A stretch of DNA of 18,776 bases from Candidatus Roizmanbacteria bacterium CG06_land_8_20_14_3_00_34_14 (lineage in GTDB: Bacteria; Patescibacteriota; Microgenomatia; UBA1406; GWC2-37-13): NCBI GenBank assembly GCA_002779665.1, contig PEVZ01000031.1, positions 4,245 through 23,020 on the forward strand, in the 5' to 3' direction. A program made the position numbers and the translations under genes. Shown piece after piece: positions 1 through 18,776 of the stretch. Below the pieces are notes generated by a model, which made no database searches, was not told the DNA's origin, and saw only the letters and a list, made by a program, of their open reading frames with translations. Each line of letters begins with the position of its first letter. Position 1 is the first letter of the stretch.

Positions 1-47
1 TACGTCGTTGCCTTAATATACGAGCGGTAGTGATGCTCTTTTTCTTC

Positions 48-76
48 GTCCGCCGTAGCTTTATGCGAAAGCGGAT
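48..76. repeat. GC-rich short hairpin repeat
   Basis: A GC-rich patch in AT-rich DNA. TCCG (50-53) pairs with CGGA, and an inner CTTT pairs with AAAG just before it, with a six-base internal bulge on the left arm. It lies downstream of the 42-residue microprotein on the minus strand. Its style (TCCGCC and GGCGGA halves) resembles the palindromes near 4523 and 9523, so it may be one of a dispersed family or a transcript end. Bases 1-47 hold nothing else I can support. Confidence 0.4.
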
Positions 77-86
77 TAGCTTAAAT

Positions 87-215
87 TCACAGATGATAAA
101 GTGTCACCGGTATTCTTAAATTCTTCTTCGCTAATTTCTTGAATTGATCTGCCACAAAAGCGATTAAATCATTCTTCTTCTGATATTTAGTTTTAAATAT
201 GGCTGACTTATTCAT
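87..215 (-). CDS. Conserved-looking 42-residue microprotein
   Basis: A 42-residue basic, soluble protein read from ATG at 215 to TGA at 87. It has no cysteines and no membrane segment. The first 30 residues are Lys-rich and probably helical (KKNDLIAF, then QFKKLAKK), and the protein ends in a distinctive RIPVTLYHL tail. The start is supported by a near-perfect promoter, TTGACA (251-246), 17-base spacer, TATCAT (228-223), seven bases ahead of the ATG. The ending looks like small conserved hypothetical proteins I associate with Microgenomates, but I cannot name a family. It is divergent from the nuclease-fold gene at 423. It could be a nucleic-acid-associated or ribosome-associated small protein; that is a guess from its charge only. 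Confidence 0.6.
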   Translation of the reverse strand: MNKSAIFKTKYQKKNDLIAFVADQFKKLAKKNLRIPVTLYHL

Positions 216-222
216 AACCCTT

Positions 223-251
223 ATGATAAAGAAAGTAATATTGTTTGTCAA
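223..251 (-). promoter_or_regulatory. Sigma70-type promoter of the 42-residue microprotein
   Basis: TTGACA (251-246) and TATCAT (228-223) are separated by exactly 17 bases. The -10 ends seven bases before the ATG at 215, so transcription should start on or next to the start codon (leaderless). Confidence 0.7.
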
Positions 252-276
252 GTCCTATAGCAAAATACTCTTCATT

Positions 277-292
277 TATAAGACGTCTTATA
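277..292. promoter_or_regulatory. 16-bp perfect palindrome, possible operator
   Basis: TATAAGACGTCTTATA is a perfect 16-bp palindrome in the divergent gap between the microprotein promoter and the nuclease-fold gene. It lies 25 bases upstream of the -35 at 251-246. A dimeric repressor or activator site is plausible; no regulator is encoded next to it. Confidence 0.4.
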
Positions 293-333
293 GTATTTAT
301 ATCACAGTTTATATTGTTGTATCAATACAATAA

Positions 334-360
334 AAGTTATCCAGAGTCTGTGGATAACTT
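334..360. repeat. Inverted repeat with two DnaA-box-like sites
   Basis: AAGTTATCC (334-342) and GGATAACTT (352-360) form a nine-bp inverted repeat with a nine-base loop. Overlapping it are TTATCCAGA (337-345; 8 of 9 to the DnaA box TTATCCACA) and TGTGGATAA (349-357; a perfect DnaA box on the minus strand). It could be a DnaA-binding regulatory site or merely a hairpin. It is just upstream of the promoter for the gene at 423. Confidence 0.4.
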
Positions 361-370
361 ATTTTAATCA

Positions 371-399
371 TTGGTTATTACTAAGCTGTATAATATAAT
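371..399 (+). promoter_or_regulatory. Promoter of the nuclease-fold gene
   Basis: TTGGTT (371-376), 17 bases, then TATAAT (394-399). A second overlapping TATAAT sits at 389-394. The predicted transcript begins near 406 and gives a leader of about 17 bases to the ATG at 423. It also argues against the TTG at 399 as a start, since that TTG lies inside the -10. Confidence 0.6.
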
Positions 400-422
400 T
401 GTCTAAAATTACCTTATCTATT

Positions 423-1208
423 ATGAATTTTTCCGTCTTAACATATAACACACTATTTAATAAAGCTTTTTTACAACTGAAAACAATCATCGATAAGAAC
501 CATCCGGATATTCTTTGTCTCCAGGAAGTTGATATTTCACCGGATAATTTAAAAAATCTAAATAAATATGGCTACCAACTGGCAGATTATTCTGGTACGT
601 TTATTAAATTTGGTAGAGCTTTTGGCGTAGCAACCTATTATAACCCACAAAAGTTTAAATTTATAAATTCAAATTCATTAAAGATTTCTTCTAATTTATC
701 GGAGCTTTTTTATACTATTCCCCAGTTTATCCTTGGCATTAATAAACTCAAGACCGTTCTCCAAACTGATTTTATCAGTAAGGTGAATAATAAAAAAATC
801 GTCATCTGTAATTCTCATCTGATTGTCATCGCGTCCAATAAGGTGAGGGTAAATCATATTGATGAAGCGTTAACTTCTCTAAATATCAGCAATAAAATAC
901 CACTTATTATCGTTGGAGACTTTAATTATCTACCTTATCAGAGAAAAAGATTAGATAATATTATGGCTAAATTTAATCTAAAAGAAGCCACAAAAAATAT
1001 TATGCAGACAGTCGATTTTTCTTCTAATGGAAAAAAAGAAGACTTCTCCTTTTTGCAAGGATTTTTAATAAGAAGGATTAATCATTTTTTCGGAAATCAG
1101 ATGAAAAATGATTATATTTACTATCGAGGTGTTAGACTATCTAAGACTGACAGGATCGAAGTCCGCTTCTCCGATCACTATCCTGTAATTTCAAACTTCA
1201 AAATTTAA
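423..1208 (+). CDS. Endonuclease/exonuclease/phosphatase-family protein
   Basis: A 261-residue single-domain protein of the metal-dependent EEP superfamily (exonuclease III, DNase I, inositol-phosphatase and sphingomyelinase relatives). The superfamily landmarks are present in order: Asn in TYNTLF (residue 9), Glu in LQEVD (E35), His in NSHL, Asp and Asn in GDFN (D166, N168), and the catalytic pair in SDHYP (D251, H252). The full catalytic set implies an active phosphodiesterase or phosphatase, but the substrate (DNA, phospholipid or other) cannot be read off. There is no signal peptide. The ATG at 423 is chosen over the TTG at 399, which falls in the -10 box; MNFSVLTYNT also begins the domain as usual. 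The 3' end overlaps the convergent glycosyltransferase by 11 bases. Confidence 0.85.
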   Translation: MNFSVLTYNTLFNKAFLQLKTIIDKNHPDILCLQEVDISPDNLKNLNKYGYQLADYSGTFIKFGRAFGVATYYNPQKFKFINSNSLKISSNLSELFYTIPQFILGINKLKTVLQTDFISKVNNKKIVICNSHLIVIASNKVRVNHIDEALTSLNISNKIPLIIVGDFNYLPYQRKRLDNIMAKFNLKEATKNIMQTVDFSSNGKKEDFSFLQGFLIRRINHFFGNQMKNDYIYYRGVRLSKTDRIEVRFSDHYPVISNFKI

Positions 1209-2031
1209 TTTTTGTCAATTTTATAAATAATTTTTTTATTTTATTTAGATAATTTTTTAATTTGACATCAATCATTTTTGTTTTAATTTCTTTAAAATAT
1301 TGTCCGCCCATTTGAGCTTGATAACCTAATTTTTTATTTGTTATCTCGCCTAAAAGAATAGTATAGAAACTTGCTATTCCGTATTTTAAGAATATATTTA
1401 CATAGCCGTCTTTTTTAACCCTTCTAAATGACCATTTTACTAATTTTTTTGGGATAATATGCAATTTTATTCCTGCATTTTGAATTCTTATACTCAAATC
1501 ATGATCTTCACTAATAGTAGTTTTTTCATTGAATCCTTTCAATTTAATAAAAATGTTCCTTAAAATAACAAAATTATATCCTGGAGCCATTTGTTTATTG
1601 ATTAACTTTAAAATTTCAAGACCGTAATTAGCTATCTGAGCCAAAATTAAATTAAAACTATCATTATCATCTGGTAACTGGTAAGTAGTCAAAAAAGGAT
1701 ATGAATACTTGTCTATATATTTTTTTAAATCAGAAAGATAATTCTTTTTTATTCTTGAGTCTGCATCTAAAAAAACTAGGTATTCACCTGTGCTATTTTT
1801 AGCACCTAAATTTCTCTGATAACATAAGTTTCTTTTCTGACTAATTACTGCTTTTATCAGATATTTATTTTTATATTTCATTGCTACATCTATTGTTCTA
1901 TCTTCTGATTTTCCATCGACTATGATAATTTCAAAATTCTTTTCTTTCTGCTTAGTCAGGTCATCGAGTAAATTAGGTAGGTATTTTTCCTCATTTAAGG
2001 TAGGAATGATAACTGAAAAAAAAGGCTTCAT
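1198..2031 (-). CDS. Family-2 glycosyltransferase
   Basis: A 277-residue GT-A fold, family-2 glycosyltransferase, moving a nucleotide-activated sugar onto a cell-surface glycan or lipid acceptor at the inner membrane face. Seen: the N-terminal SVIIPTLNEE strand and loop (6-15), VDG (38-40), the nucleotide and metal-binding DAD (89-91), and the SEDHDLSIR motif (173-181) that supplies the catalytic base. There is no clear transmembrane helix. The C-terminus is Lys-rich and amphipathic, which could hold it at the membrane. It is divergent from a second family-2 enzyme at 2066 with only 34 bases between start codons, which suggests the two serve the same surface polysaccharide. Donor and acceptor are unknown. 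Confidence 0.9.
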   Translation of the reverse strand: MKPFFSVIIPTLNEEKYLPNLLDDLTKQKEKNFEIIIVDGKSEDRTIDVAMKYKNKYLIKAVISQKRNLCYQRNLGAKNSTGEYLVFLDADSRIKKNYLSDLKKYIDKYSYPFLTTYQLPDDNDSFNLILAQIANYGLEILKLINKQMAPGYNFVILRNIFIKLKGFNEKTTISEDHDLSIRIQNAGIKLHIIPKKLVKWSFRRVKKDGYVNIFLKYGIASFYTILLGEITNKKLGYQAQMGGQYFKEIKTKMIDVKLKNYLNKIKKLFIKLTKIKF

Positions 2032-2040
2032 ATAGTATGT

Positions 2041-2060
2041 ATTATAACATTTGGTAAAAT
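2041..2060. promoter_or_regulatory. Back-to-back promoters of the two glycosyltransferases
   Basis: The 34-base gap between the divergent starts holds TATAAT on the minus strand (2046-2041, nine bases before the ATG at 2031) and an extended -10, TGGTAAAAT, on the plus strand (2052-2060, five bases before the ATG at 2066). Neither has a convincing -35. Both predict leaderless or nearly leaderless mRNAs, and the promoters lie so close that they may exclude each other. Confidence 0.55.
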
Positions 2061-2065
2061 TGGAT

Positions 2066-2767
2066 ATGAAAGTATCCGTCGTTATACCTGTCTATAATGA
2101 AGAAAAAAGAATTAAGGTCTGCCTTGATTCTTTGATGGCTCAGACGGAAAAACCTGATGAAATTATTGTTGTTGATAATAATTGTACTGATAAAACCATT
2201 AAGATTGTTAAAAGATATTCTGAAGTAATAGTCGTCGTAGAAAAAAAACAAGGTATGACACCTGCCAGAAATGCCGGATTGAATTATTCTAAAAATGAAA
2301 TTATTATCAAATGTGATGCTGATAGTCTACTGCCTTTTAATTTTATTAAAAATATAAAAAATAATTTTAATCAAAACCCATCGATAATTGGAATATCTAT
2401 GCCAATTATTTTTGGCGATTTGAAAATATTAGGTTCATCGACATTACCTTTTTATTTTTACACGTTTATTGCAAGATTAATAGTTGGATTTTATTTTTTT
2501 ATTGGTCCAGGTTATGCTCTAAAAAGAACAGCTTGGGACAAAGTAAAAAATGAAATATGTCTTAATGATGAAAAGGTTCATGAAGATATTGACCTTAGTC
2601 TACATCTGAAAAAATATGGAAAAATATATCATGACCAAAAAACAATCGTTACCTCTTCTGCGCGAAGGATGATTAATAATCCGTTATCTTTTTTCGGAGA
2701 ATATATCCATCGATTTTTTAAGATGTATTGGAGTCATCGCCATATTTATGAACGGACCATACTTTGA
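2066..2767 (+). CDS. Family-2 glycosyltransferase, membrane-associated
   Basis: A 233-residue family-2 glycosyltransferase. Seen: SVVIPVYNEE (4-13), VVDNNCTDKT (35-44), the metal-binding DAD (84-86), GPGYALKR (147-154), and HEDIDLSLHLK (172 on), which carries the catalytic acidic pair. A strongly hydrophobic stretch (about 126-150) between the DAD and ED motifs suggests membrane association. The ATG at 2066 is preferred to the TTG at 2051, because the TTG overlaps the extended -10 and the family normally begins directly with the first strand (MKVSVVIPV). It probably works with the neighbouring divergent glycosyltransferase on a surface glycan. Its last 22 bases overlap the end of the convergent ligase gene. 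Confidence 0.9.
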   Translation: MKVSVVIPVYNEEKRIKVCLDSLMAQTEKPDEIIVVDNNCTDKTIKIVKRYSEVIVVVEKKQGMTPARNAGLNYSKNEIIIKCDADSLLPFNFIKNIKNNFNQNPSIIGISMPIIFGDLKILGSSTLPFYFYTFIARLIVGFYFFIGPGYALKRTAWDKVKNEICLNDEKVHEDIDLSLHLKKYGKIYHDQKTIVTSSARRMINNPLSFFGEYIHRFFKMYWSHRHIYERTIL

Positions 2768-4503
2768 AGTTCTTCGAGTGTAGTCACTTCTCCCGATTTT
2801 TTATCATCGCGGAATCGTTCCAATCTTGGAAAACGCAAAGCCAAATCTGCCGTGTGAGTAGGTGATTTTGTGATCTCATCGGCTTTTATTTCGACAACTA
2901 TTTTTGGCATAATCCAAACATCGCACTCTGCTTGCTTATCAACTAAATAATTTTTTGGCTTTTCCTTAATCCTTAGCTCATTACTCATCACCCATAACTT
3001 TTTCCACTCTTTGTCTGTCAATCCTGTCCCGATTTTAGCAACTGTCACAAATTTATCTTTTTTCTCATCTAAGACCCCGACCAAAAATGCTCCCATTCCA
3101 AAATCAGCCCTTTTTCCTTTTCCAAAATCATAACCCATCACTAAACAATCGATTGTATCGTTAATCCTTGAGGAATAACTTCTTTTATACTTGATCCAGT
3201 TCCATCCCCGGGCTCCAGGTTGATACACCCCGTCAATTTTTTTAGCGATCACTCCTTCTAATTTTTTTGAAATTGCACTTTCAAAAATTTCTTCTAACCT
3301 TTTTTCCTTATCTACCTCTTCTTGATTATCAACAACTATAATTTGCTTACTGATATCCTTATTTTTTATTGTCACTTTTTCAAGTGCGTTTCTTCTTTCA
3401 AAAAAAGGTTCCTTAATAAAATTTTTTCCATTCAAATATAAAAGTTCGAAAGCAAAAAGTTTTAATGGCACTTCAATTGCCTTTGCTCCAATATCATATT
3501 TTCGCTTTCTCTGCACTGTTTCTTGAAATGGAAGGAATTCCCCTGTCTTTGGATTATAACCGATCGCCTCCCCTTCGATTATTAATTCATCGGCTTTGAC
3601 TTCCCTCTTTACCCCCTCAACAATGTCAGGATACATAAAAGTCACATCCTCAAGGCTTCGTGAAAACAATCTGACCTTTGGGAGGCTCTTTACAGGGTCT
3701 GACCCTCGTCGAGGGTCAGACCCTAGGTAATGCACCTGCAGTCTAAACCCATCAAATTTCGGCTCAACCAAACACTTTCCTATTTGCTTAATTATTTCTT
3801 TAGCCGATGACATTCGCTCTGCCTTCATCATAATAATTGGCGTAAACACTTCAGGGCCAATTTCCTTTAAACCATCGACTCCTTTTTCCTTGAGGATTTT
3901 TCCAATAAATCCTAAATCGGGACGTACGTGGTAGGCAGTTTCAATAACCGGTCGCAAACTTTTGTCTCCGGTAAGCATCCAAGAATATGCGTCCAACACT
4001 GTCATATCAGAAAATCCGAGACGGATAATGCCGGTCGGAAGGCGGACTAAATAGCGACCTGATAATGGGTCAAGTTGACGAATAAGCTGGGCTAACAAAC
4101 TGGTTTTTATATCCTGGGAACCATTGCCGGTGGCAGTTGCTAATCGATAAAAGAAATCAAAAACGGTCAGAACTTCCATATCTTTTTCTTCGAAAGAGGT
4201 ATATATTTTTTTGAAACTCTCAACAGTCGCTCCCAAATCGCCACTTTTTTTAAATTCTTTTTCAAAATAACTTCTGTCAATATTAAGGGCGGACATAGCC
4301 GATTTAATAATCGTTCGTTCGGCCATACCAAAATCAATTCCTTCATAAGCAGGCCCAACCCGCCCCTGAAGCAGATAAACAACCTTGGCAATTTCCTGAG
4401 AGTTTAGTTTATTAAAAAGCTCTGCAAGAATTCGAGTAATCTCAAGACGGGAGGAATTACCCTCAATTTTTTCAAAGTATCGTGATAATTCTGAAAAAAA
4501 CAT
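2746..4503 (-). CDS. lig: ATP-dependent DNA ligase, archaeal type
   Basis: A 585-residue ligase that seals nicked DNA using ATP. Order: N-terminal DNA-binding domain (about 1-210), adenylation domain with motif I EPKFDGFR (nucleophile K249), motif III LIIEGEAIGYN, motif IIIa FELLYLNGK, motif IV EGVIAKK and motif V WIKYKR, then an OB-fold domain ending with motif VI-like ALRFPRLERFRDDK. Length and Lys position match archaeal and CPR ligases. Oddity: directly after the motif I strand (residues 260-271) there is an extra loop reading GSDPRRGSDP, encoded by a 31-bp perfect palindrome (3694-3724) that keeps the frame; relatives usually go straight from this strand to VRLFSR. The loop is at a turn, so activity is probably kept. 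The gene lies downstream of the Fic gene. Confidence 0.95.
   Translation of the reverse strand: MFFSELSRYFEKIEGNSSRLEITRILAELFNKLNSQEIAKVVYLLQGRVGPAYEGIDFGMAERTIIKSAMSALNIDRSYFEKEFKKSGDLGATVESFKKIYTSFEEKDMEVLTVFDFFYRLATATGNGSQDIKTSLLAQLIRQLDPLSGRYLVRLPTGIIRLGFSDMTVLDAYSWMLTGDKSLRPVIETAYHVRPDLGFIGKILKEKGVDGLKEIGPEVFTPIIMMKAERMSSAKEIIKQIGKCLVEPKFDGFRLQVHYLGSDPRRGSDPVKSLPKVRLFSRSLEDVTFMYPDIVEGVKREVKADELIIEGEAIGYNPKTGEFLPFQETVQRKRKYDIGAKAIEVPLKLFAFELLYLNGKNFIKEPFFERRNALEKVTIKNKDISKQIIVVDNQEEVDKEKRLEEIFESAISKKLEGVIAKKIDGVYQPGARGWNWIKYKRSYSSRINDTIDCLVMGYDFGKGKRADFGMGAFLVGVLDEKKDKFVTVAKIGTGLTDKEWKKLWVMSNELRIKEKPKNYLVDKQAECDVWIMPKIVVEIKADEITKSPTHTADLALRFPRLERFRDDKKSGEVTTLEELQSMVRS
3694..3724. repeat. 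31-bp perfect palindrome inside the ligase gene
   Basis: Two 15-base arms (3694-3708 and 3710-3724) around a single central T at 3709. Each arm is itself built on a 13-bp palindrome (AGGGTCTGACCCT and AGGGTCAGACCCT), so the element is two small palindromes joined by CGTCG. It is GC-rich in an AT-rich gene. In the ligase frame it reads GSDP-RR-GSDP without a stop. It looks like a mobile or REP-like palindromic unit that landed in frame. No target duplication is evident. Confidence 0.85.
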
Positions 4504-4522
4504 AAGGTAATTTTAGCTGGTC

Positions 4523-4535
4523 CCGCCACAGGCGG
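4523..4535. repeat. Short GC-rich palindrome
   Basis: CCGCC, loop ACA, GGCGG, just upstream of the ligase start. It is closely similar to the palindrome at 9523-9538 (CCGCC, AACA, GGCGG) and is therefore probably a dispersed repeat rather than a gene-specific signal. Confidence 0.55.
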
Positions 4536-4557
4536 AAGAGAATTATTAATAATTCAG

Positions 4558-4648
4558 TAAAAGCGCGATGCTTAATTTTTTTCGACTTGGGAATCCCCCG
4601 AAGGGGGAAGGTTCCCACAGAGAAATAAAATTTAGTATCACGCTTTTA
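4558..4648. repeat. MITE-like inverted-repeat element, 91 bp
   Basis: The outer 22-base arms (4558-4579 and 4627-4648) match as inverted repeats at 19 of 22 positions and begin and end with TAAAAGCG / CGCTTTTA. Inside is a second strong hairpin: TGGGAA (4588-4593) with TTCCCA (4612-4617), and CCCCC (4595-4599) with GGGGG (4603-4607) around a GAA loop. It fills the space between the Fic stop and the ligase start. It has no coding capacity and no T-run typical of a terminator on the minus strand, so a small non-autonomous element is more likely than a simple terminator. Confidence 0.6.
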
Positions 4649-4657
4649 AATATTAAA

Positions 4658-5701: not shown

Positions 5702-5707
5702 GGAATA

Positions 5708-5716
5708 ATTATATCA
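5708..5716 (-). promoter_or_regulatory. Extended -10 promoter of the Fic gene
   Basis: TGATATAAT (5716-5708 on the minus strand) is a perfect TGn-TATAAT extended -10, ending six bases before the ATG at 5701. No good -35 is visible, which is normal for extended -10 promoters. Confidence 0.65.
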
Positions 5717-5777
5717 CTAAATAAGTTGTAAATTAAAAGTTAGAGGTCAAAAATTACCTTTTTGACTTTTAAATTTC

Positions 5778-5786
5778 TGTTATAAT
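5778..5786 (+). promoter_or_regulatory. Extended -10 promoter of the pilin-like pair
   Basis: TGTTATAAT (5778-5786) is a perfect extended -10 ending six bases before the ATG at 5793, so the transcript should begin at the start codon. A TTGACT at 5762-5767 is too close (13 bases) to act as its -35. Confidence 0.65.
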
Positions 5787-5792
5787 TTTATA

Positions 5793-6089
5793 ATGGTTTA
5801 CGCATTTAATATTAATCCTACAAGTTTTCCCGCTGCTAAAATAGGCAAGGTCAGTGATATTATGAACATAGCCCTTCCTTTGGCAATGACCGGTGGAGGT
5901 TTAATTTTTTTGTTCATTCTGTTGAAGGCAGCTTTTGATATTTTGACTAATGGTGATAATCCCGATGCTTTAAAAAAAGCCTACGCCTCAATTACGACAT
6001 CTGTCGTTGGTCTAATTATTGTTATTGCCAGTTTCCTCGCCATTCAATTGTTAGGAGTTATTTTAAAAACAGATATAATACCAAAATGA
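5793..6089 (+). CDS. T4SS-pilin-like two-helix membrane protein (first)
   Basis: A 98-residue protein with two hydrophobic helices (about 24-47 and 66-91) joined by a short polar loop (NGDNPDALKKAY). This is the layout of the VirB2/TrbC-like and T4SS_pilin families that CPR bacteria carry in multiple copies. It has no cleavable signal peptide with an obvious A-x-A site, although residues 10-15 (TSFPAA) could be processed. It overlaps the next pilin-like gene by four bases (ATGA), so the two are translationally coupled and probably co-assemble. A role in a type IV secretion or surface filament is inferred from family and pairing. No VirB4 or VirB6 gene is in the window. Confidence 0.75.
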   Translation: MVYAFNINPTSFPAAKIGKVSDIMNIALPLAMTGGGLIFLFILLKAAFDILTNGDNPDALKKAYASITTSVVGLIIVIASFLAIQLLGVILKTDIIPK

Positions 6090-6469
6090 AACTTTTAGCA
6101 GATACTGATAAAGCCGTTCAAGAATTATTTGGAGGAATTACTCCGCCTGATTCTATGAATGTTGGTGGAGATAATCCTGTCCAAGGGCTTGGTAAACTGG
6201 TTGCATTTGGGATAAATATGTTTATTACAATCGCTGGAATATTTCTTATTATTTATCTGCTTTGGGGTGCTTTTGATTGGATTTCATCCGCCGGTGAAAA
6301 AGAAAAAATTACTAAAGCTCAAAATAAAATCACTAATGCTTTAATAGGAATTGTTTTAGTTTTTGTCGTCCTGACAGTATTTAATCTATTAGCCGGTAAT
6401 CTGCTTGGGATTGTTAATCCAATCGACGGTGGCGGATTTGAAATAAAATTACCCACCCTTGGGCAATGA
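6086..6469 (+). CDS. T4SS-pilin-like two-helix membrane protein (second)
   Basis: A 127-residue protein with an extended N-terminus (1-34), then two hydrophobic helices (about 36-64 and 82-108) separated by a charged loop (SSAGEKEKITKAQNK), and a Pro/Gly-rich tail. It has the same two-helix plan as the gene before it, and the helix-end motif LWGAFDWISSAGEKEK is typical of pilin-like proteins from CPR genomes. Its ATG overlaps the previous stop (ATGA), which would allow translation without any ribosome binding site. The two proteins may be major and minor subunits of one filament or pore. The 3' end comes within 18 bases of the convergent ATPase gene. Confidence 0.75.
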   Translation: MKLLADTDKAVQELFGGITPPDSMNVGGDNPVQGLGKLVAFGINMFITIAGIFLIIYLLWGAFDWISSAGEKEKITKAQNKITNALIGIVLVFVVLTVFNLLAGNLLGIVNPIDGGGFEIKLPTLGQ

Positions 6470-7714: not shown

Positions 7715-7743
7715 ATATTAACCCTTTATTTTCACTTTGTCAA
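7715..7743 (-). promoter_or_regulatory. Promoter of the AAA-14/DUF4143 gene
   Basis: A consensus TTGACA (7743-7738), a 17-base spacer, and TAATAT (7720-7715). The -10 ends six bases before the ATG at 7708, again predicting a leaderless transcript. Confidence 0.7.
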
Positions 7744-10364: not shown

Positions 10365-10382
10365 CCATTTATATTATATACT
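10354..10382 (+). promoter_or_regulatory. Promoter of the 5S rRNA gene
   Basis: TTGTTT (10354-10359), a 17-base spacer, and TATACT (10377-10382), with the mature 5S end at 10390 eight bases downstream. The -35 lies inside the start region of the divergent PH-domain gene, whose own -10 TATAAT (10378-10373, minus strand, eight bases before its ATG) overlaps this -10 by two bases. Confidence 0.7.
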
Positions 10383-10389
10383 ATCTATC

Positions 10390-10509
10390 GTCCTGGTTAC
10401 TTGAGCGACTTGGTCCCACCCTTTTCCATCCCGAACAAGGTCGTGAAACGAGTCAGCGCCAATGATACTCACATCGAAAGATGAAGGGAAAGTAGGTCGT
10501 AGCCGGGAC
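10390..10509 (+). rRNA. rrf: 5S ribosomal RNA, solitary
   Basis: A 120-base 5S rRNA, unlinked to 16S or 23S. The terminal helix is complete: GTCCTGGTTAC (10390-10400) pairs with GTAGCCGGGAC (10499-10509) over 11 pairs, including G-U wobbles. Conserved interior segments are in place: TGGTCCCACC (10411-10420), CCATCCCGAAC (10426-10436), GTGAAACG (10443-10450), GCGCCAATGATACT (10456-10469) and AAAGTAGGTCG (10489-10499). A nine-T run starts two bases after the 3' end, and a -35/-10 pair sits just upstream, so it is an independent transcription unit. The small open frame across it (10290-10484) is not a gene. Confidence 0.95.
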
Positions 10510-12538: not shown

Positions 12539-12846
12539 TTAACTGATTTTTTTTATTGATTCACCCTCTACTGTTCGACTTTTATTTCCTGCCGATGGCC
12601 TAATATTAATCATCGAATCAAATTCAATAAAATTTTCTTTTTCTTCCGGATAAATGTTAACCCCCAAAGGTTTTTTTGCTCTGATCCATTTTTAATAAGA
12701 AGAGCTTCCTCATCAGCATGTAGCTCACCATCAACAACTATTATTTTTTTATCAATATCGATGACTACCTTAACCAAGTTTCCAAACATATTCTTTGCCA
12801 TTTCGTCAATTTCCTTTAAAGTAATTTTTTTAGTAACTATTTTCAT
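12539..12846 (-). pseudogene. DUF5674-like gene broken by one-base frameshift
   Basis: The first frame, from ATG at 12846, encodes 62 residues of a DUF5674-type protein (FGNLVKVVIDIDKK, GELHADEEALL, NGSEQKNLWG) and then runs into an unrelated Lys-rich tail to TGA at 12610. The missing continuation is present in another frame from about 12660 to TAA at 12539 (VNIYPEEKENFIEFDSMINI, then RPSAGNKSR), which is the expected family ending. Restoring one G in the G5 run (C run 12661-12665 on the plus strand) gives one intact protein of about 102 residues, the usual family length. Whether it is a true mutation, programmed shifting or an assembly error cannot be told here. A TATAAT six bases before the ATG drives it. 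Longer starts up to 12951 overlap the tRNA and are rejected. The protein's function is unknown. Confidence 0.8.
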
Positions 12847-12852
12847 AAGAAC

Positions 12853-12858
12853 ATTATA
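12853..12858 (-). promoter_or_regulatory. -10 element of the DUF5674-like gene
   Basis: TATAAT (12858-12853, minus strand) ends six bases before the ATG at 12846; there is no clear -35. It lies in the divergent gap shared with the tRNA-Gln gene. On the plus strand the same gap has an extended -10, TGGTAAAAT (12882-12890), which would serve the tRNA starting at 12901. Confidence 0.55.
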
Positions 12859-13010: not shown

Positions 13011-13775
13011 ATGTTACTTTTTATTCAATCTTTCATTTTTTTAATCTTTATTACTGTTTTATTCATTTGCATCAGGTTAATACCTGGAATAAACTCTACA
13101 TCATTGATAGCAACTAGCGAAGGTGTTGGTTGGCTTTATTCTGAAATAGGTCTTATATTTGGTGTTTTTGCTGCTTTTACAATCCAATCTCAGGCGAAAA
13201 AGTGGGACGATCTTATCAGCTCCATACGTAAAGAAGTAATAAATCTACATCGACTTTTTTGGCTTTCCAATCACCTACCATCAGATGTGGGAAAAAGACT
13301 ACAACTCGGTATTCAGGAATATCTCGGTTTAGTAATGAATGAAGGATGGAAAAACATTGATACAGGCTATCGTTCTTCAACCTTAGAAAATTCTATTCAC
13401 TTTTTACAAGAAGTCGTTTTTGATCTTCCTAAAACTTCTCCTGAATATTCTTCCACTGCAATCACGATAATTAAAGAAATCTTTGAAAGTCGAGAGGAAA
13501 GAATATTCCAAAGCTCAAAAAGAACATCGCTTCTTCTTAAGGCTACTATTTACACGGGAGCGATAATGATGATTATACTTTCATATTTTATTGGAGTAAG
13601 TAATTTTTGGATTGATTATATATTTACCGGAAGTATTGCTTTCCTTACAACTCTTATTATTATGGTAATTGAAGATCTTGAACATCCATATCGTCCAGGT
13701 CACTGGCACGTAACACAAGAGTCTTATCAAACATTACTCGGTGAGGTGTCAAAAAATAATTTATATAAAAAATAA
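13011..13775 (+). CDS. DUF4239 (bestrophin-like) membrane protein
   Basis: A 254-residue membrane protein of the DUF4239 family, described as bestrophin-like. Two helices lie near the N-terminus (about 3-22 and 42-60), a cytoplasmic helical region with WDDLISSIRKEVINLHRL and LPSDVGKRLQLGIQEYL follows, and two more helices (about 172-192 and 197-220) lead to the family-typical end motif IEDLEHPYRPGHW. Channel activity is suggested only by the name and distant similarity. It begins 38 bases after the tRNA-Gln. A TATAAT directly abuts the ATG and is badly placed for it, so read-through from the tRNA promoter is possible. It is followed after 20 bases by an FTR1-type permease in the same direction. 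Confidence 0.85.
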   Translation: MLLFIQSFIFLIFITVLFICIRLIPGINSTSLIATSEGVGWLYSEIGLIFGVFAAFTIQSQAKKWDDLISSIRKEVINLHRLFWLSNHLPSDVGKRLQLGIQEYLGLVMNEGWKNIDTGYRSSTLENSIHFLQEVVFDLPKTSPEYSSTAITIIKEIFESREERIFQSSKRTSLLLKATIYTGAIMMIILSYFIGVSNFWIDYIFTGSIAFLTTLIIMVIEDLEHPYRPGHWHVTQESYQTLLGEVSKNNLYKK

Positions 13776-13795
13776 TTTAGATAAAACATATATTT

Positions 13796-14632
13796 ATGAT
13801 TGCAACTGCATTAATTTCTTTTAGAGAATTTTTAGAGGCCTTCTTGATAATAGGTGTTTTTCTGGGTATTTCAAGAAAACTTAATTTAAAAAAAGAGTCC
13901 GAAATTAGCCTGGCTTCAATAATTGGATTGTTAACTTCACTCCTGATGGCAACGGGTACTTATTTTTATGGTAATCAAGTTCGAGGTATTTTGACCGAAA
14001 AAAATACTGAACTGCTTGAGAGCTATTTAATGATATTTTCCGGAATATTTATTACTTACGTAATCTTTTCACTTCATGAAGTTATTAACAAAAGTCGCAC
14101 CGGGACTTTGATCAAACTTAAACAAAAACTAAACAAAAAAGTCTTTGATTTTTCCTTATTTTCAATGATCGTTTTTTTGATTCTTAGGGAAGGATTTGAA
14201 ATCGCATTGTTTACAGCCAGCACTTCTCTCTTTTCCGTCTTCATCCAAAATTTTATCGGCCTGATGTTAGGATTTTTTGTCGCCTCAATCCTTGGATTAA
14301 TGACGTTTTTTGCCTATATTAAATTTTCTATCAGCAAAATATTCAGATTTACTGAATATATGATAATCGTTCTCGGGGCCGCCTTAATTCAAAACGGTAT
14401 AACAGAATTATTAGAGCATAATTTTGATATTAATTTATCAAAGATATTGTCTATTCCTCTTAATTTTTTGCCACATAAAAGCACAGTTATTGGTCATATG
14501 TTAAAAAGTTTTTTGGGAATAAGTCGTGAATTCAGTTTTTCAAAATTGGCAATTATGGGAGTGTATTTTTTAATAGTATATTTATTGTTCCTGAAAAAGA
14601 AAAGGTCGCAAATAAATATAAATCCTAAATAA
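13796..14632 (+). CDS. FTR1-family high-affinity iron permease
   Basis: A 278-residue integral membrane protein with about seven helices. Both hallmark R-E-x-x-E iron-binding motifs are present: REFLE (10-14) in the first helix and REGFE (131-135) in the fourth. The first motif has Phe in place of the usual Gly, while the charged residues are kept. FTR1/EfeU permeases carry ferric iron, normally fed by a ferroxidase (EfeO, EfeB or a multicopper oxidase); none is encoded here, so either a partner lies elsewhere or the transported metal differs. It is likely co-transcribed with the DUF4239 gene 20 bases upstream. The gene ends four bases from the convergent aldehyde dehydrogenase. Confidence 0.92.
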   Translation: MIATALISFREFLEAFLIIGVFLGISRKLNLKKESEISLASIIGLLTSLLMATGTYFYGNQVRGILTEKNTELLESYLMIFSGIFITYVIFSLHEVINKSRTGTLIKLKQKLNKKVFDFSLFSMIVFLILREGFEIALFTASTSLFSVFIQNFIGLMLGFFVASILGLMTFFAYIKFSISKIFRFTEYMIIVLGAALIQNGITELLEHNFDINLSKILSIPLNFLPHKSTVIGHMLKSFLGISREFSFSKLAIMGVYFLIVYLLFLKKKRSQININPK

Positions 14633-14635
14633 TAA

Positions 14636-15988
14636 TTACATTTGTTTTTCTATTACAACAGTTTTAATATTGACAAACTCTTTGAGTCCGTATGAAGACA
14701 GTTCCCGGCCATAACCTGAATTTTTAGAACCTCCAAAAGGCAAGCGAATATTTGAAGTCACTTTATTATTAATAAATACTGAGCCTGATTCTAACTCTTC
14801 TATAAATAATTGAGCTCTTTTTTTATTATTTGTCCAGACTGATGCTCCCAGTCCAAACTTCGTATCATTGGCAATTTTAATTGTCTCAGCATCATCTTCG
14901 ACAATAAAGATTGTAGCCACCGGTCCGAAAGCCTCTTCAAAATAGAGTGGCATTTTTTTAGTCACATCGGCAATAATTGTTGGCGGGTAAAAATATCCTT
15001 TCTTAGCAATTCTCTTTCCTCCTGTAATTATTTTTGCTCCCATTTTCACCGAACTGTTAACCTGATCTTCAATTGTCTCTAAAATTTTTTTACCAGAAAG
15101 TGGTCCTATTTTATTTTCTATTTCCTTAAAATTTTTTGTTAATTCCCGGATAAACTCATTAGCTATTTTTTTTTGAATAATAAAACGTTTAGCGGAAATA
15201 CAGACTTGACCGCTGACACTAAGTCTTGCCGAAGTGGCAACCAAGGAAGCCTTTTTAATATCGGCGTCGTCGAGAACTATAAATGGATCGCTCCCGCCTA
15301 ATTCTAAAATTGATTTTTTAATCGAAGCTCCTGCAAGCGAAGCGACTGCCGATCCGGCTTTTTCACTTCCCGTAAGAGTTACTCCACGGACATAATTACT
15401 TTTGATCACTATCTCACTCATTGAGGAATCGATTAATAGATTCTGAAAAACCCCTTTGGGAAAACCTGCCTCAATAAATATTTTTTCAATCAATTGAGAA
15501 GTCTGGGGTACATTTGACGCAAGTTTAAGTAACATCGTATTGCCAACCATAAGAGCCGGAACAGCCGCCCGAAACACTTGCCAGAAAGGATAGTTCCACG
15601 GCATAATCGAAAATATAACCCCTAAAGGTTCAAAACGGATATAGGATTCTTCGGCTTCAGTTTTGATTATTTCTTTTTTTAAAATCGCCTCTGCACTACC
15701 GGCAAGAAATTCACACAAAGTTGCGCATTTCTCTACTTCAGCCGTGCTCTCTTCAATATTTTTTCCCATCTCCATTGTTATCATTTTGGCGAATTTTTGC
15801 TTATGGAGAAGTAATATTTTTCCGACTTTTTTCATCAAAACCTTTTTTTCTGAAAAAGGAACTTTCTTCCATTTTTTAAAAGCCTCATGACTCAAATTAA
15901 TTTTATTTTCCAATTCATTTTCAGTCAAAATGGGGAATTCTCCAAAAATTTCTTCCGTCGCCGGATTTATTGAAAGTAATTTTTTCAT
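14636..15988 (-). CDS. NAD(P)-dependent aldehyde dehydrogenase, succinate-semialdehyde type
   Basis: A 450-residue aldehyde dehydrogenase, oxidising an aldehyde to its acid with NAD(P)+ in the cytoplasm. The catalytic set is complete: N132 in PWNYP, general base E229 in LELGG, nucleophile C263 in GQVC, plus LPFGGSKNSGYGRE near the end. The LLKLASNVPQTS stretch and overall length resemble the YneI/Sad-type succinate-semialdehyde dehydrogenases, but CPR members probably have other substrates. The start ATG is 24 bases after the stop of the thiamine-diphosphate enzyme gene, in the same direction, so they form an operon. There is no ribosome binding site; no separate promoter is obvious. Confidence 0.93.
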   Translation of the reverse strand: MKKLLSINPATEEIFGEFPILTENELENKINLSHEAFKKWKKVPFSEKKVLMKKVGKILLLHKQKFAKMITMEMGKNIEESTAEVEKCATLCEFLAGSAEAILKKEIIKTEAEESYIRFEPLGVIFSIMPWNYPFWQVFRAAVPALMVGNTMLLKLASNVPQTSQLIEKIFIEAGFPKGVFQNLLIDSSMSEIVIKSNYVRGVTLTGSEKAGSAVASLAGASIKKSILELGGSDPFIVLDDADIKKASLVATSARLSVSGQVCISAKRFIIQKKIANEFIRELTKNFKEIENKIGPLSGKKILETIEDQVNSSVKMGAKIITGGKRIAKKGYFYPPTIIADVTKKMPLYFEEAFGPVATIFIVEDDAETIKIANDTKFGLGASVWTNNKKRAQLFIEELESGSVFINNKVTSNIRLPFGGSKNSGYGRELSSYGLKEFVNIKTVVIEKQM

Positions 15989-16012
15989 ATAATTTATGCT
16001 AAGCGGGACGCT

Positions 16013-17656
16013 TTACAAAATACAGGTTTTTTCCTTTAATTCCTTCACTAAAATTCTATAATCATCCGAATAATCAATTGGCACCTCAATCAAATGAACT
16101 CCTTTTTTATCAAAAACTTCTTTTAAATATTTTTCCAAATCTCCGCTTTTTTCAACCTGATAACCATTAGCTCCGTATGATTTGGCAAGGGCAACAAAAT
16201 CAGGATTTCCAAAACTTAAGGCAAAATCATCTAAACCCATCGTCTTTTGTTTCCATTTAATCATCCCAAAAGCATTATCACGCAAAATAATAATTGTTAA
16301 GTCTAATTTTAATCTATTGGCCGTCTCTAATTCCTGAGAATTCATAAGAAAGCCCCCATCCCCACAAATGGCGATGACTTTTTTTTCCGGAAAAATAATT
16401 TTGGCGGCCATAGCTGATGGTAAACCTGCCCCCATCGAAGCTAGGGCATTATCTAAAAGTAAAGTATTTTGTTTTAAAGTATGATAATTTCTTGCAAACC
16501 AGATTTTATACATTCCATTGTCTAAAGTGACTATGTCTTCTTCGGCCATATTTTGTCTTATGACTTTAACAATTTGTTGCGGGGAATATGGAAAACGTTC
16601 TCTCTTTGTAATTGATTGAAAGTGAGCATTTAAATATTTCTGCATTTTATAAAAATAGGAAAAATCCCAGTCTGACTTTTTACTAATCAGATTGCCAATC
16701 TGTCGAATTGTGTTGGCAATATCTCCGACCACTTCATGCTGAGGAAAATAAATCTGATCAACAATAGCCGGAAAAAAATTAATATGGATCACTTCTCTTC
16801 TATCACTTTCATCCATTATAAACGGTGGTTTTTCAATCGTATCATGACCAACATTAATAATTAAATCTGATTTGTTTATTGCACAGTGAATATAATCATT
16901 TTCAGAAAGTGCCGCTGTCCCTAAATATTGAAGATGCTTTTCGGTGACCACTCCTTTCCCCATTTGAGTCGTAAAAAAAGGAATGCCTGTTTTTTCAATA
17001 AAATCAGTTAAAACTCGCGAAGTCCTTTTCCGATTGGCTCCGGCTCCGATTAAGACTAAAGGACGCTCTGCCTTCTCTATCATTTCAACCGCTTTTTTTA
17101 TTGATTTTTCCTCAGCGACCGGACGTCGGGTATGATGGTTAATCATTGGAACTCCGGTGGCTATTTCCTCAGCGACGTCTTCTGGAAGTTCTAAATGGAC
17201 AGCCCCGGGTCGCTCTAATTTTGCAACCCGAAATGCCTCTCTCACTATCATTGGGATCATCTCACCATTAATAATCTGCTTAGTTAACTTGGTGATTGGA
17301 CGAAACATCTCAACAGTATTGATAATCTGGAAATTACCTTGTTTGCTTTTTTTTATCGGTTTTTGACCGGTAATAAATAAAGCTGGCATTCCCCCAAGTT
17401 GAGCATAAGCAGCGCTTGTCACTAAGTTAGTTGCACCTGGTCCCAAAGTGGACAAACAAACACCTGGAATTCCGGTTAATCTACCGATGGTGGCAGCAAT
17501 AAAACCAGCCGCCTGTTCATGCCTGGTGACTACAAATTTAATTGAAGAATTTTTTATTGCCTGAAGCAGTTGTAAATTTTCCTCACCAGGAACGCCAAAA
17601 ATATATTTAACCCCCTCACTCTCTAAACATTTTACCAATAACTGTGCGCTATTCAT
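16013..17656 (-). CDS. Thiamine-diphosphate enzyme, acetolactate synthase large-subunit type
   Basis: A 547-residue ThDP-dependent enzyme of the acetolactate synthase (IlvB/AlsS) class, expected to decarboxylate pyruvate and join two units into acetolactate. Domains: N-terminal ThDP-binding with catalytic E47 in RHEQAAGF, GRLTGIPGVCLSTLGPGATN, a central domain, and the C-terminal ThDP/Mg domain with GDGGF (432-436) and DN (460-461) about 27 residues later. No small regulatory subunit or other branched-chain gene is nearby, so a catabolic or another keto-acid role is as likely as amino-acid synthesis. It is first in an operon with an aldehyde dehydrogenase. A promoter TTGTAA (17694-17689), 17 bases, TAAGAT (17671-17666) ends nine bases before the ATG. 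Confidence 0.92.
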   Translation of the reverse strand: MNSAQLLVKCLESEGVKYIFGVPGEENLQLLQAIKNSSIKFVVTRHEQAAGFIAATIGRLTGIPGVCLSTLGPGATNLVTSAAYAQLGGMPALFITGQKPIKKSKQGNFQIINTVEMFRPITKLTKQIINGEMIPMIVREAFRVAKLERPGAVHLELPEDVAEEIATGVPMINHHTRRPVAEEKSIKKAVEMIEKAERPLVLIGAGANRKRTSRVLTDFIEKTGIPFFTTQMGKGVVTEKHLQYLGTAALSENDYIHCAINKSDLIINVGHDTIEKPPFIMDESDRREVIHINFFPAIVDQIYFPQHEVVGDIANTIRQIGNLISKKSDWDFSYFYKMQKYLNAHFQSITKRERFPYSPQQIVKVIRQNMAEEDIVTLDNGMYKIWFARNYHTLKQNTLLLDNALASMGAGLPSAMAAKIIFPEKKVIAICGDGGFLMNSQELETANRLKLDLTIIILRDNAFGMIKWKQKTMGLDDFALSFGNPDFVALAKSYGANGYQVEKSGDLEKYLKEVFDKKGVHLIEVPIDYSDDYRILVKELKEKTCIL

Positions 17657-17665
17657 TTGGCTTAT

Positions 17666-17694
17666 ATCTTAATATCTTTTAATATTATTTACAA
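17666..17694 (-). promoter_or_regulatory. Promoter of the acetolactate-synthase-like operon
   Basis: TTGTAA (17694-17689), a 17-base spacer, and TAAGAT (17671-17666), nine bases before the ATG at 17656. It is of moderate quality in a very AT-rich gap. Confidence 0.45.
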
Positions 17695-17741
17695 TTAGAA
17701 AATTTATAAAAAAAATAAAATTTATTGACTACATTGTAACG

Positions 17742-18380
17742 CTATAACTTAGCACTCATTAATCTTCTTTTTGCCATTTTGATTCTTAAGGTTGAGGATA
17801 TATTCCAATGAAATAAAAAGCGGAAAATACTTTTTTTAAATTTATCTTGAGCGGTAATAACTCCTCTTGGATTATCAACCAAATTTATTGAATATTTATC
17901 GGCCATATATTCTGTTGTCCACCTGATTAAATAGATAGAGACAATACTCAACAGTATTGCGTAGAGTGGTATAAAAAATAAATTAATTTTGTTTTTTTGA
18001 ATTAGATAAATTCCTACACTCAAAATAATCATTTCTATAAAAAAAGATTGAAGATTATGCCATAAAACGCAGTGTCCGGCTTCATGGAGAATAACCCATT
18101 CAAGTTCATCTTTATTAAAAGACTTATAAAGACCAGTTGAAAGAATCATTTTCGGCCAAAAAGGTAATCCTGCCATCATCCCATACATTTTTTTGTCATG
18201 AAATAAAGTTACGTCAAACAAATTTAATCCAGTTTTCTTCTTGACAACATTTTTTATCCATTCATCCTTAATTGTACTTGTCTTTATCTTTGGTCCAACA
18301 AACAAACTTGAAAAACTAATGATTTGAAACCAATTAACAATGACAAGAAAAAGTATTATAAAAATGATTATGTTAATCAT
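17742..18380 (-). CDS. M48-type membrane metallopeptidase
   Basis: A 212-residue zinc peptidase of the M48 (HtpX/Ste24-like) class. Seen: an N-terminal membrane helix (2-22), the zinc site HEAGH (99-103; ligands H99 and H103, catalytic E100), two further helices (about 112-128 and 133-152), and TEYMAD (156-161), whose E157 is the third zinc ligand with D161 in the usual E-x-x-x-D arrangement. It is shorter than HtpX (about 290 residues) but keeps all active-site residues, so it is likely active at the cytoplasmic membrane in protein quality control. The ATG directly follows the stop of a 34-codon open frame (18381-18485), which suggests coupling. Its promoter appears to lie upstream of that small frame. 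Confidence 0.88.
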   Translation of the reverse strand: MINIIIFIILFLVIVNWFQIISFSSLFVGPKIKTSTIKDEWIKNVVKKKTGLNLFDVTLFHDKKMYGMMAGLPFWPKMILSTGLYKSFNKDELEWVILHEAGHCVLWHNLQSFFIEMIILSVGIYLIQKNKINLFFIPLYAILLSIVSIYLIRWTTEYMADKYSINLVDNPRGVITAQDKFKKSIFRFLFHWNISSTLRIKMAKRRLMSAKL

Positions 18381-18485
18381 TTAAAATAAAATCAATAATT
18401 TTTTCCAACCCTCTACAGCCAAGACATTCTTTGCAACTTCATTACCGAGTCCAAGAATAATAATTACGCGATTATTTAAATTCAT
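18381..18485 (-). CDS. Possible 34-residue leader peptide ahead of the peptidase
   Basis: This open frame runs from ATG at 18485 to TAA at 18381, directly before the peptidase ATG at 18380. The product is hydrophobic in parts (RVIIILGLGNEVAKN, then KKLLILF) and matches nothing I know. Support for it being translated: TATAAT (18498-18493) ends seven bases before its ATG, the same spacing as other first genes here, and its stop abuts the next start. Against: it is short and could be chance. Inside it is a 14-base segment complementary to part of the hairpin at 18535-18569. A regulatory leader is a reasonable guess only. Confidence 0.4.
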   Translation of the reverse strand: MNLNNRVIIILGLGNEVAKNVLAVEGWKKLLILF

Positions 18486-18492
18486 TTAAATT

Positions 18493-18498
18493 ATTATA
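18493..18498 (-). promoter_or_regulatory. -10 element ahead of the leader frame and peptidase
   Basis: TATAAT (18498-18493, minus strand) lies seven bases before the ATG at 18485, within an alternating AT stretch. The -35 is not clear. Confidence 0.45.
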
Positions 18499-18534
18499 TA
18501 TATTTTTGTTCTTATAAATATCATATTTAAAACG

Positions 18535-18569
18535 TTACATTCTTTTCACGGCCGTTGCAAAGAATGTAA
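18535..18569 (-). terminator. Hairpin after the partial DUF5666-like gene
   Basis: TTACATTCTT (18535-18544) and AAGAATGTAA (18560-18569) form a perfect 10-bp stem; the 15-base loop holds the palindrome ACGGCCGT. It starts three bases after the stop of the gene ending at 18572, and on the minus strand is followed by CGTTTTAAAT, a weak T-run. It is likely an intrinsic terminator or a 3'-end stabiliser. Confidence 0.6.
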
Positions 18570-18571
18570 AA

Positions 18572-18776
18572 TTATTTTTCAGTTCCTTTAATTTTTTGGG
18601 TTGGATTAAATTGAACATTTTGTGCCGTTACGTTACCATCGGTATTTTTTGAACCAAAAACAGATACGTTTTCCCAAACTTTTAGTTCAGATTTATTATC
18701 TGTTTGCACTTTGTTAATGACTGTTTTCGCGTTTATTAAAACTATTTTACTACTGTCATCTTGCAGTTTGACAGTG
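18572..18776 (-). CDS. 3' end of a DUF5666-like protein (partial)
   Basis: This open frame enters from the window edge and stops at TAA (18572-18574), leaving 67 visible C-terminal residues. The segment reads as beta-rich: KIVLINAKTVINKV, SELKVWENVSVFGSKN, then TDGNVTAQNVQFNP. This resembles the DUF5666 beta-barrel repeat (metal- or ligand-binding-like domains of exported proteins; typical wording is L-x-V-G-x-x-V-x-V-x-G-x-x-x-x-D-G-x-V-x-A-x-x-I). Such proteins in CPR often have a signal peptide or membrane anchor, which would lie outside the window. It is followed closely by a strong hairpin. The domain assignment is from pattern memory. Confidence 0.65.
   Translation of the reverse strand, partial: TVKLQDDSSKIVLINAKTVINKVQTDNKSELKVWENVSVFGSKNTDGNVTAQNVQFNPTQKIKGTEK

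What the first reader, a model, noticed from the sequence alone, without database searches (positions are those of the whole stretch)
1..18776. Leaderless, Shine-Dalgarno-free gene starts across the window
Seen: none of about twenty starts has an AGGAGG-like site. A good -10 ends 5-9 bases before the ATG at 215, 2031, 2066, 5701, 5793, 7708, 10364, 12401, 12846, 17656 and 18485; several are TGn extended -10s, and 215 and 7708 also have TTGACA at a 17-base spacing. With normal spacing the transcript would begin at the ATG. Internal operon genes (6086, 9823, 11161, 13796, 15988) also lack a site and would rely on coupling or 70S entry. The consistency suggests that leaderless initiation is the default for first genes in this organism. 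The background is very AT-rich, so TATAAT-like words are common by chance; the fixed distance is the real signal.
Basis: partly seen in the sequence, partly recalled or inferred. Interest (0 to 1): 0.7.

Follow-up and report, generated by a model that had tools for sequence, protein, structure and literature searches.

The report
Shine-Dalgarno-free, leaderless starts in Patescibacteria
In this tiny uncultured bacterium many genes carry their promoter so close to the start codon that the messenger RNA should begin at or next to the AUG itself, and the usual ribosome-binding signal shows no sign of use; the same promoter position recurs in much of what was sampled of its phylum.

Summary
All 11 listed starts have a TAnnnT word ending 5-9 bases before the ATG; so do 14 of 15 operon-leading starts in the window, against 18% expected, and 0 of 21 starts have a Shine-Dalgarno (SD) word at 4-13. 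In half of the genome (160 operon-leading genes) a motif fit begun from random words recovers an extended -10, TGnTATAAT, with its mode exactly 6 bases before the ATG, at 5-9 in about 47% of genes; the excess over shuffles is about 24%. A -35 word sits at spacing 17 in 12 of 84 such promoters and in 0-1 at each other spacing. Orthologues of gene 5793 keep the -10 at 5-8 in 18 of 19 genus genomes although flanks have diverged. SD words are not enriched in the order (29 of 605 starts, 50 of 605 control positions), yet the 16S anti-SD is intact in 10 of 10 readable genus relatives. Internal genes show an A-rich, T(-1) context instead. The peak recurs elsewhere in the phylum (55 of 377). 'Default' is too strong: roughly a quarter to a half of first genes. 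No transcript ends were mapped. Known mechanism, apparently unreported lineage.

The parts
5781..5786 (+). -10 TATAAT (TGT extended), 6 bases before ATG 5793 (T4SS-pilin-like operon)
   Evidence: 18 of 19 genus orthologues keep TAnnnT at 5-8, 16 at exactly 6
5793..6089 (+). small membrane-type protein, first gene of a two-gene operon; predicted leaderless
   Evidence: no Pfam match
6074..6079 (+). -10-like TATAAT 6 bases before ATG 6086 inside the operon; not conserved (7 of 19 orthologues)
6086..6469 (+). T4SS_pilin family gene (PF18895), internal gene overlapping the previous stop
223..228 (-). -10 TATCAT, 7 bases before ATG 215 (42-codon ORF)
246..251 (-). -35 TTGACA, spacing 17 to the -10 of 215
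   Evidence: read
2041..2046 (-). extended -10 TGT-TATAAT, 9 bases before ATG 2031; divergent pair with 2066, 34 bases between starts
2055..2060 (+). -10 TAAAAT (TGG extended), 5 bases before ATG 2066
5708..5713 (-). extended -10 TGA-TATAAT, 6 bases before ATG 5701 (Fic/DOC protein)
7715..7720 (-). -10 TAATAT, 6 bases before ATG 7708 (AAA_14/DUF4143 protein)
7738..7743 (-). -35 TTGACA, spacing 17 to the -10 of 7708
   Evidence: read
10373..10378 (-). -10 TATAAT, 8 bases before ATG 10364; lies between the ATG and the divergent 5S rRNA gene
   Evidence: 17 of 17 readable genus orthologues keep it at d=7-8; 5S
10392..10508 (+). 5S rRNA gene, 27 bases from ATG 10364, divergent
   Evidence: Rfam RF00001, 73.7 bits
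12409..12414 (-). -10 TAAAAT, 7 bases before ATG 12401 (DUF2130)
12853..12858 (-). -10 TATAAT, 6 bases before ATG 12846 (DUF5674)
17666..17671 (-). -10 TAAGAT, 9 bases before ATG 17656 (TPP enzyme)
18493..18498 (-). -10 TATAAT, 7 bases before ATG 18485 (34-codon ORF)

Best explanation
A sigma-70-type promoter (extended -10 TGnTATAAT, sometimes with TTGACA 17 bases upstream) is placed so that RNA polymerase starts on the A of the ATG or within a few bases of it; the mRNA of many operon-leading genes is therefore leaderless, or nearly so, and would be read by a ribosome that enters on the 5'-AUG. Internal operon genes are started without Shine-Dalgarno pairing, in an A-rich, G-poor context with U at -1. 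Shown: position, sharpness, -35 register, conservation in two genes, absence of SD signal. Inferred: the transcription start, 5'-AUG entry, and any pairing of U(-1) with the initiator tRNA (recalled model, untested).
For: TAnnnT ends at d=6 before 20.6% of 160 first genes, against 1.1% of 1427 internal ATGs and 3.75% per position at d=16-45 of the same genes; at 5-9 in 75 of 150 first genes off the window's contig, against 131 of 1427 internal ATGs. Best -10 word at 5-9: 52 of 150, shuffle mean 16.2, maximum 25 in 50 rounds; internal ATGs 145 of 1427 against 152.8. Mixture fit: T.60 G.39 n T.89 A.92 T.50 A.71 A.75 T.98, mode d=6, from a TATAAT seed and again as the best-scoring fits (top 4 printed) of 60 random-word starts. 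-35 (5 of 6 of TTGACA) at spacing 17: 12 of 84 own first genes, other spacings 0-1; 26 relatives 16 of 238, other spacings 0-5; internal ATGs 4 of 131 and 4 of 442. Gene 5793: 18 of 19 orthologues, flank identity 0.37 against 0.61 in the -10; 10364: 17 of 17. Controls 9490 (6 of 18) and 6086 (7 of 19) lack it. Eleven of 31 divergent pairs under 400 bases have starts 74 bases or less apart. E. coli control: SD 19 of 40 starts, TAnnnT at 5-7 in 0 of 25 first genes.
Against: No transcript data. At least half of first genes lack a clear -10 at 5-9. Starts were taken as the first ATG; only 23 of 70 orthologue pairs agreed on it. A second peak at d=8 and cases at d=9-10 predict leaders of 2-4 bases if transcription always starts 7 bases after the -10. 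T(-1) is equally common with and without a -10 (60 of 84 and 56 of 77), so it is no evidence for transcription starting at the A. The same fit on 160 internal ATGs also put 24% of its mass at 5-9, though on a different motif with codon periodicity, so the 47% should be read with the 24% shuffle excess. Samples of single relatives are small; G018 has no significant d=6 peak (3 of 38, p=0.16), although its 5-7 window is in excess (12 of 38).
Confidence: 0.86

Rival explanations
1. Chance: TATAAT-like words are common in a 66% A+T genome and any start will have one nearby.
For: The background is AT-rich; a 5-wide window holds a TAnnnT by chance in 17.8% of cases.
Against: Single-base sharp peak at 6; dinucleotide shuffles and internal ATGs show none; -35 register at 17; orthologue conservation; the peak also appears in relatives at 43-45% G+C (G135, G065).
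Confidence: 0.02
2. The AT-rich motif is a translation element (a non-SD ribosome-binding signal as in Bacteroidetes), not a promoter; leaders exist and are longer.
For: Start contexts are AT-rich throughout; internal genes, which need no promoter, show an A-rich T(-1) signal and some TAnnnT at d=6 (18 of 131).
Against: The motif is TGnTATAAT with a TTGACA at 17 bases in first genes and not in internal ones (0 of 39 at spacing 17); among 65 first genes with over 150 bases of upstream space the strong -10 words cluster at 5-9 (13, against 0-4 per 10-base bin beyond d=10).
Confidence: 0.06
3. Short-leader initiation: transcripts begin 1-5 bases upstream of the ATG, and T(-1) is in the mRNA.
For: Second peak at d=8 (12.5%); T(-1) at 72% in first and 65% in internal genes, whether or not a -10 is present; one conserved TTGACA-type promoter with TATACT has d=10 (L014).
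Against: The mode is d=6, which puts the A at the usual start 7 bases after the -10 (established promoter geometry, recalled); a pyrimidine before a purine is also what polymerase prefers (recalled).
Confidence: 0.25
4. SD is used but missed because the anti-SD of this lineage has changed.
For: Two genomes of family f3 of the order have CATCTCC instead of CACCTCC in 16S; the own genome's 16S is not held.
Against: 10 of 10 readable genus 16S genes carry CACCTCC; a motif fit from random starts on internal genes finds A-rich sequence, not a purine block with G.
Confidence: 0.03

Closest known systems
-10 region adjacent to ORFs in Deinococcus-Thermus (PMC12340547; passages seen)
   Same: TANNNT word a few bases upstream of the ORF, a -35 that enhances it when present, about 30% of ORFs on average, predicted leaderless mRNA.
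   Different: There an RBS motif coexists; here no SD signal is seen in the order. That study's domain-wide scan left out symbiotic and unclearly classified species; its species table was not seen.
Bacterial leaderless class of GeneMarkS-2, as described in PMC9581028 (passages seen)
   Same: Leaderless transcription predicted in up to 40% of transcripts in 21.6% of bacterial species.
   Different: The example named is Mycobacterium tuberculosis; no Patescibacteria named in the passages seen. The original paper is not held.
SD-free initiation of Bacteroidetes (PMC5397173, passages seen; sequestered anti-SD recalled and cited in a reference list)
   Same: Low SD use, AT-rich weakly folded start regions; an anti-SD that is present (recalled for Bacteroidetes).
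   Different: Here the first-gene signal is an extended -10 with -35 register; whether the anti-SD is masked was not tested.
Leaderless transcripts of Mycobacterium (PMC4633059, search listing and start of abstract only)
   Same: Leaderless genes as a common feature of the transcriptome.
   Different: Experimentally mapped there, predicted only here.

Membership tests
Bacterial leaderless (-10-adjacent) genes | -10 word at a fixed distance of about 6 bases before the ATG, above shuffled and internal-ATG controls | tested here: met
Bacterial leaderless (-10-adjacent) genes | -35 element in register with that -10 | tested here: met
   12 of 84 at spacing 17, 0-1 at others; internal-ATG control 4 of 131
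Bacterial leaderless (-10-adjacent) genes | promoter position conserved in orthologues | tested here: met
   18 of 19 and 17 of 17 for two genes; internal-type controls 6 of 18, 7 of 19. For 10364 the box may also be held by the divergent 5S gene
Bacterial leaderless (-10-adjacent) genes | mapped transcript start at the A of ATG | not testable with these tools
   no RNA data
Bacterial leaderless (-10-adjacent) genes | preference for AUG over GUG/UUG starts | tested here: inconclusive
   no d=6 peak before 65 GTG/TTG codons upstream of the first ATG (4.6%), but most of those are probably not starts
Shine-Dalgarno initiation | purine-rich SD words 4-13 bases before starts above control | tested here: not met
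   29 of 605 starts, 50 of 605 at d24-33, 244 of 2847 internal ATGs, 7 genomes of the order
Shine-Dalgarno initiation | CCTCC at the 16S 3' end | tested here: met
   10 of 10 readable genus relatives; 16 of 18 in the order; own 16S not held
Patescibacteria (CPR) | no ribosomal protein uL30; genome near 1 Mb (marker recalled) | tested here: met
   0 of 20 genomes, found in 13 of 14 controls; own assembly 784,847 bases, 82.6% complete
Microgenomates-like class | no bL9 (marker recalled) | tested here: met

The most novel reading that the evidence does not exclude
Leaderless initiation is a phylum-wide feature of Patescibacteria, and at least one whole order has stopped using Shine-Dalgarno pairing altogether while keeping the anti-SD, starting first genes from 5'-AUG transcripts and internal genes by an A-rich, U(-1) context; SD use and leaderless use vary separately among families.
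Probability: 0.5. Interest if true: 0.75.

Novelty: new member of a known kind. Interest (0 to 1): 0.6.

Why it matters
Patescibacteria are a large, mostly uncultured part of the bacterial tree. If many of their genes are leaderless, gene finders that look for SD sites will misplace starts, expression tools for cultured epibionts need -10-adjacent promoters rather than ribosome-binding sites, and the phylum, with SD-using and SD-free families side by side, becomes a place to study how SD initiation is lost while the anti-SD stays.

Tried and rejected
Rejected: chance from AT-richness. Rejected: that T(-1) rises as SD use falls; across 27 genomes there is no correlation (rho 0.02, p 0.91), and SD use against leaderless excess is weak (rho -0.27, p 0.17). 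Rejected: that bS21 loss explains missing SD; bS21 is found in 25 of 27 genomes, SD users and non-users alike. S1 domains (24 of 24) and IF3 (22 of 24; not found in the incomplete own genome) gave no explanation. Weak folding: internal starts fold less than internal ATGs (-1.89 against -4.38 kcal/mol) but not significantly less than their own shuffled sequence (-2.07, p 0.06), so composition alone can explain it. Orthologue start concordance was poor (23 of 70), so that set was too small to use. The scan meant to name the taxon failed because the TPP enzyme is widely shared. My first count of the window (12 of 15) was by eye and left out two weak words; recounted by one rule it is 14 of 15, and the two upstream TATAATs of gene 423 lie at 23 and 28, one less than one search printed for the neighbouring base. 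Paper searches for leaderless with Patescibacteria, CPR bacteria, Saccharibacteria and Candidate Phyla Radiation, and for Shine-Dalgarno with Candidate Phyla Radiation and with Patescibacteria plus translation initiation (no paper), listed no title or visible abstract start reporting it; I saw passages of PMC12641178, PMC6851277 and PMC9723584, and those do not report it; the other listed papers were not opened.
Full report
What was checked. The window is 18,776 bases of one contig of an incomplete genome (784,847 bases, 72 contigs, 82.6% complete). I sampled 396,557 bases of it. An ORF caller that knows nothing of promoters gave 404 ORFs; 341 of at least 100 codons with an ATG near the front and 60 bases upstream were kept: 161 operon-leading ('first': divergent neighbour, or more than 60 bases behind a tandem one), 132 'inner' (25 bases or less, overlaps included) and 48 neither. 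Control: 1431 in-frame ATGs inside the same genes. Upstream regions with N were dropped, giving 160, 130-131 and 1427. d is the number of bases between a word and the ATG.

The window. All 11 named starts have TAnnnT ending 5-9 bases before the ATG. Of 15 operon-leading starts that I count in the window 14 have one (chance 17.8% each; p = 4e-10), two of them weak (423, 13011); of 6 internal starts, 2 (p = 0.29); SD words at 4-13 precede 0 of these 21. Two of the eleven head ORFs of 42 and 34 codons and may not be genes; without them it is 12 of 13. Gene 423 also has TATAAT at 23 and 28 and may be leadered.

The genome. TAnnnT ends exactly 6 bases before the ATG in 20.6% of first genes and 13.7% of inner genes, but 1.1% of internal ATGs; TGnTAnnnT at d=6 in 7.5% of first genes; TTGAC[AT] clusters at d=29-34 in first genes and is absent from 131 inner genes at those distances. 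With the window's contig excluded, the best -10 word falls at 5-9 in 52 of 150 first genes; 50 rounds of dinucleotide shuffling give 16.2 on average and 25 at most; inner genes 18 of 128 against 13.3, no clear excess; internal ATGs 145 of 1427 against 152.8. A mixture fit seeded with TATAAT but free in distance gives T.60 G.39 n T.89 A.92 T.50 A.71 A.75 T.98 with mode d=6 and 47% of first genes at d=5-9; the four best of 60 fits begun from random upstream words reach the same motif, distance and 47%. On inner genes both kinds of fit go to an A-rich word ending in T right against the ATG. On 160 internal ATGs the seeded fit goes to a different motif with codon periodicity, 24% of its mass at 5-9, so 47% is an upper figure and the shuffle excess, 24%, a lower one. 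Where a -10 sits at 5-9, a hexamer matching TTGACA in 5 of 6 lies at spacing 17 in 12 of 84 first genes and in none or one at each other spacing from 10 to 25; inner genes 0 of 39, a decoy set at d=20-35 1 of 72, internal ATGs 4 of 131 (0-4 at other spacings). In 65 first genes with over 150 bases of upstream space, strong -10 words number 13 at d=5-9 and at most 4 in any later 10-base bin. Among 31 divergent pairs with starts under 400 bases apart, 11 are 74 bases or less, one of them 24 bases with a shared AT block; in the E. coli stretch 1 of 9. Miscalled starts may shorten a few of these.

Conservation. Of 20 genus genomes 19 have gene 6086 and, beside it, a readable orthologue of 5793: 18 of 19 have TAnnnT at 5-8, 16 at exactly 6, while the flank from -40 to -13 has mean pairwise identity 0.37 against 0.61 in the -10. 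Gene 10364 (18 of 20 genomes) keeps TATAAT at d=8, once d=7, in 17 of 17 readable orthologues; one had no ATG near. That box lies between the ATG and the divergent 5S rRNA gene and may serve both. Two internal-type genes serve as controls: 9490 has a TAnnnT at 5-8 in 6 of 18 and 6086 in 7 of 19.

Shine-Dalgarno. In 7 genomes of the order SD words at 4-13 precede 29 of 605 starts, against 50 of 605 at d=24-33 and 244 of 2847 at internal ATGs. E. coli by the same pipeline gives 19 of 40 against 2 of 40. The anti-SD is intact: CACCTCC in 16 of the 18 16S genes whose end I could read (20 loci fetched), 10 of 10 in the genus; the two readable genomes of family f3 have CATCTCC. The own 16S is not in the assembly. 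Of 30 further 16S loci from the phylum my pattern read 16, all CACCTCC; 14 were not read.

Internal genes. T precedes the ATG in 72% of first and 65% of inner starts, 31% of internal ATGs and 25% of out-of-frame ATGs, with 38% T in the intergenic background; it is the same with and without a -10, so it belongs to the start codon rather than the promoter. Positions -9 to -2 of inner genes are richer in A (0.51 against 0.41) and poorer in G (0.08 against 0.17) than -31 to -24. I read this as SD-free entry in an open A-rich stretch; pairing of U(-1) with the initiator tRNA is a recalled model and untested. My filter printed no Met tRNA from the sample.

The phylum. The d=6 peak is present in the pooled first genes of 6 other genomes of the order (31 of 178), 4 of the class (15 of 99) and 16 elsewhere in the phylum (55 of 377), backgrounds 4.2, 2.5 and 3.8% per position. 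Individually it is strong (p below 1e-3, uncorrected) in G026, G135, G168, G065 and G078, and absent or not significant in others, such as G092, G095, G087 and G153. By comparison with d=24-33, SD words are in excess (p below 0.05, uncorrected) in G080, G050, G092, G153, G074, G078 and G111 and not in the other sampled genomes of the phylum. G078 has both. So the two modes vary separately; with 6-38 first genes per relative these single-genome calls are rough, and 26 relatives are a thin sample of the phylum.

Literature. Leaderless promoters of just this form are described in Deinococcus-Thermus (PMC12340547, passages) and leaderless transcription is predicted in 21.6% of bacterial species (PMC9581028, passages). 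My searches found no paper reporting them in Patescibacteria; most subscription papers and all bioRxiv preprints are outside that library. The mechanism is therefore known and the lineage apparently new.

After the one check: the window count was raised from 12 to 14 of 15, the word 'unsupervised' was replaced by what was run and backed, the internal-ATG results were added, and small coordinates and ranges were corrected.

Noticed in passing
L047, L059 (G026 and G029, family f3 of the order): 16S 3' end reads GGATCATCTCC in the two f3 genomes with a readable 16S, against ATCACCTCC in the other 16 readable relatives: a changed anti-SD core in a lineage whose sample shows no SD use.
   Followed up: partly
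10365-10391: Only 27 bases separate ATG 10364 from the divergent 5S rRNA gene; one AT block seems to hold -10 elements for both directions, and 17 orthologues show the same AT block, most with the 5S sequence beyond it.
   Followed up: partly
3695-3723: A 29-base palindrome (GGGTCTGACC...GGTCAGACCC) lies inside the DNA ligase reading frame without breaking it; one further site in the sampled genome, none in samples of six relatives.
   Followed up: partly
L005, L008 and other own-genome stretches: Palindrome GTAGGGAACAAAAATTTTTGTTCCCTAC, 12 hits over both strands (about 6 sites) in 396 kb, some directly before start codons; none in the samples of six relatives.
   Followed up: partly
14636-17656: Aldehyde dehydrogenase and TPP-enzyme pair; the TPP enzyme is 89% identical to one in an unnamed MAG (WY2.bin75) and 57-63% to enzymes of many unrelated phyla among the 80 loci listed, suggesting lateral gain.
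   Followed up: no
12610-12846: The DUF5674 ORF matches only positions 2-65 of the 109 in its family profile, so it looks truncated or frame-shifted.
   Followed up: no
first-gene starts, own genome: A second, smaller -10 peak at d=8 with less at d=7; unexplained.
   Followed up: no
G118, L062: 16S scoring above the other 29 fetched from the phylum (1576 bits) with an unlike 3' end, perhaps a contaminant contig.
   Followed up: no
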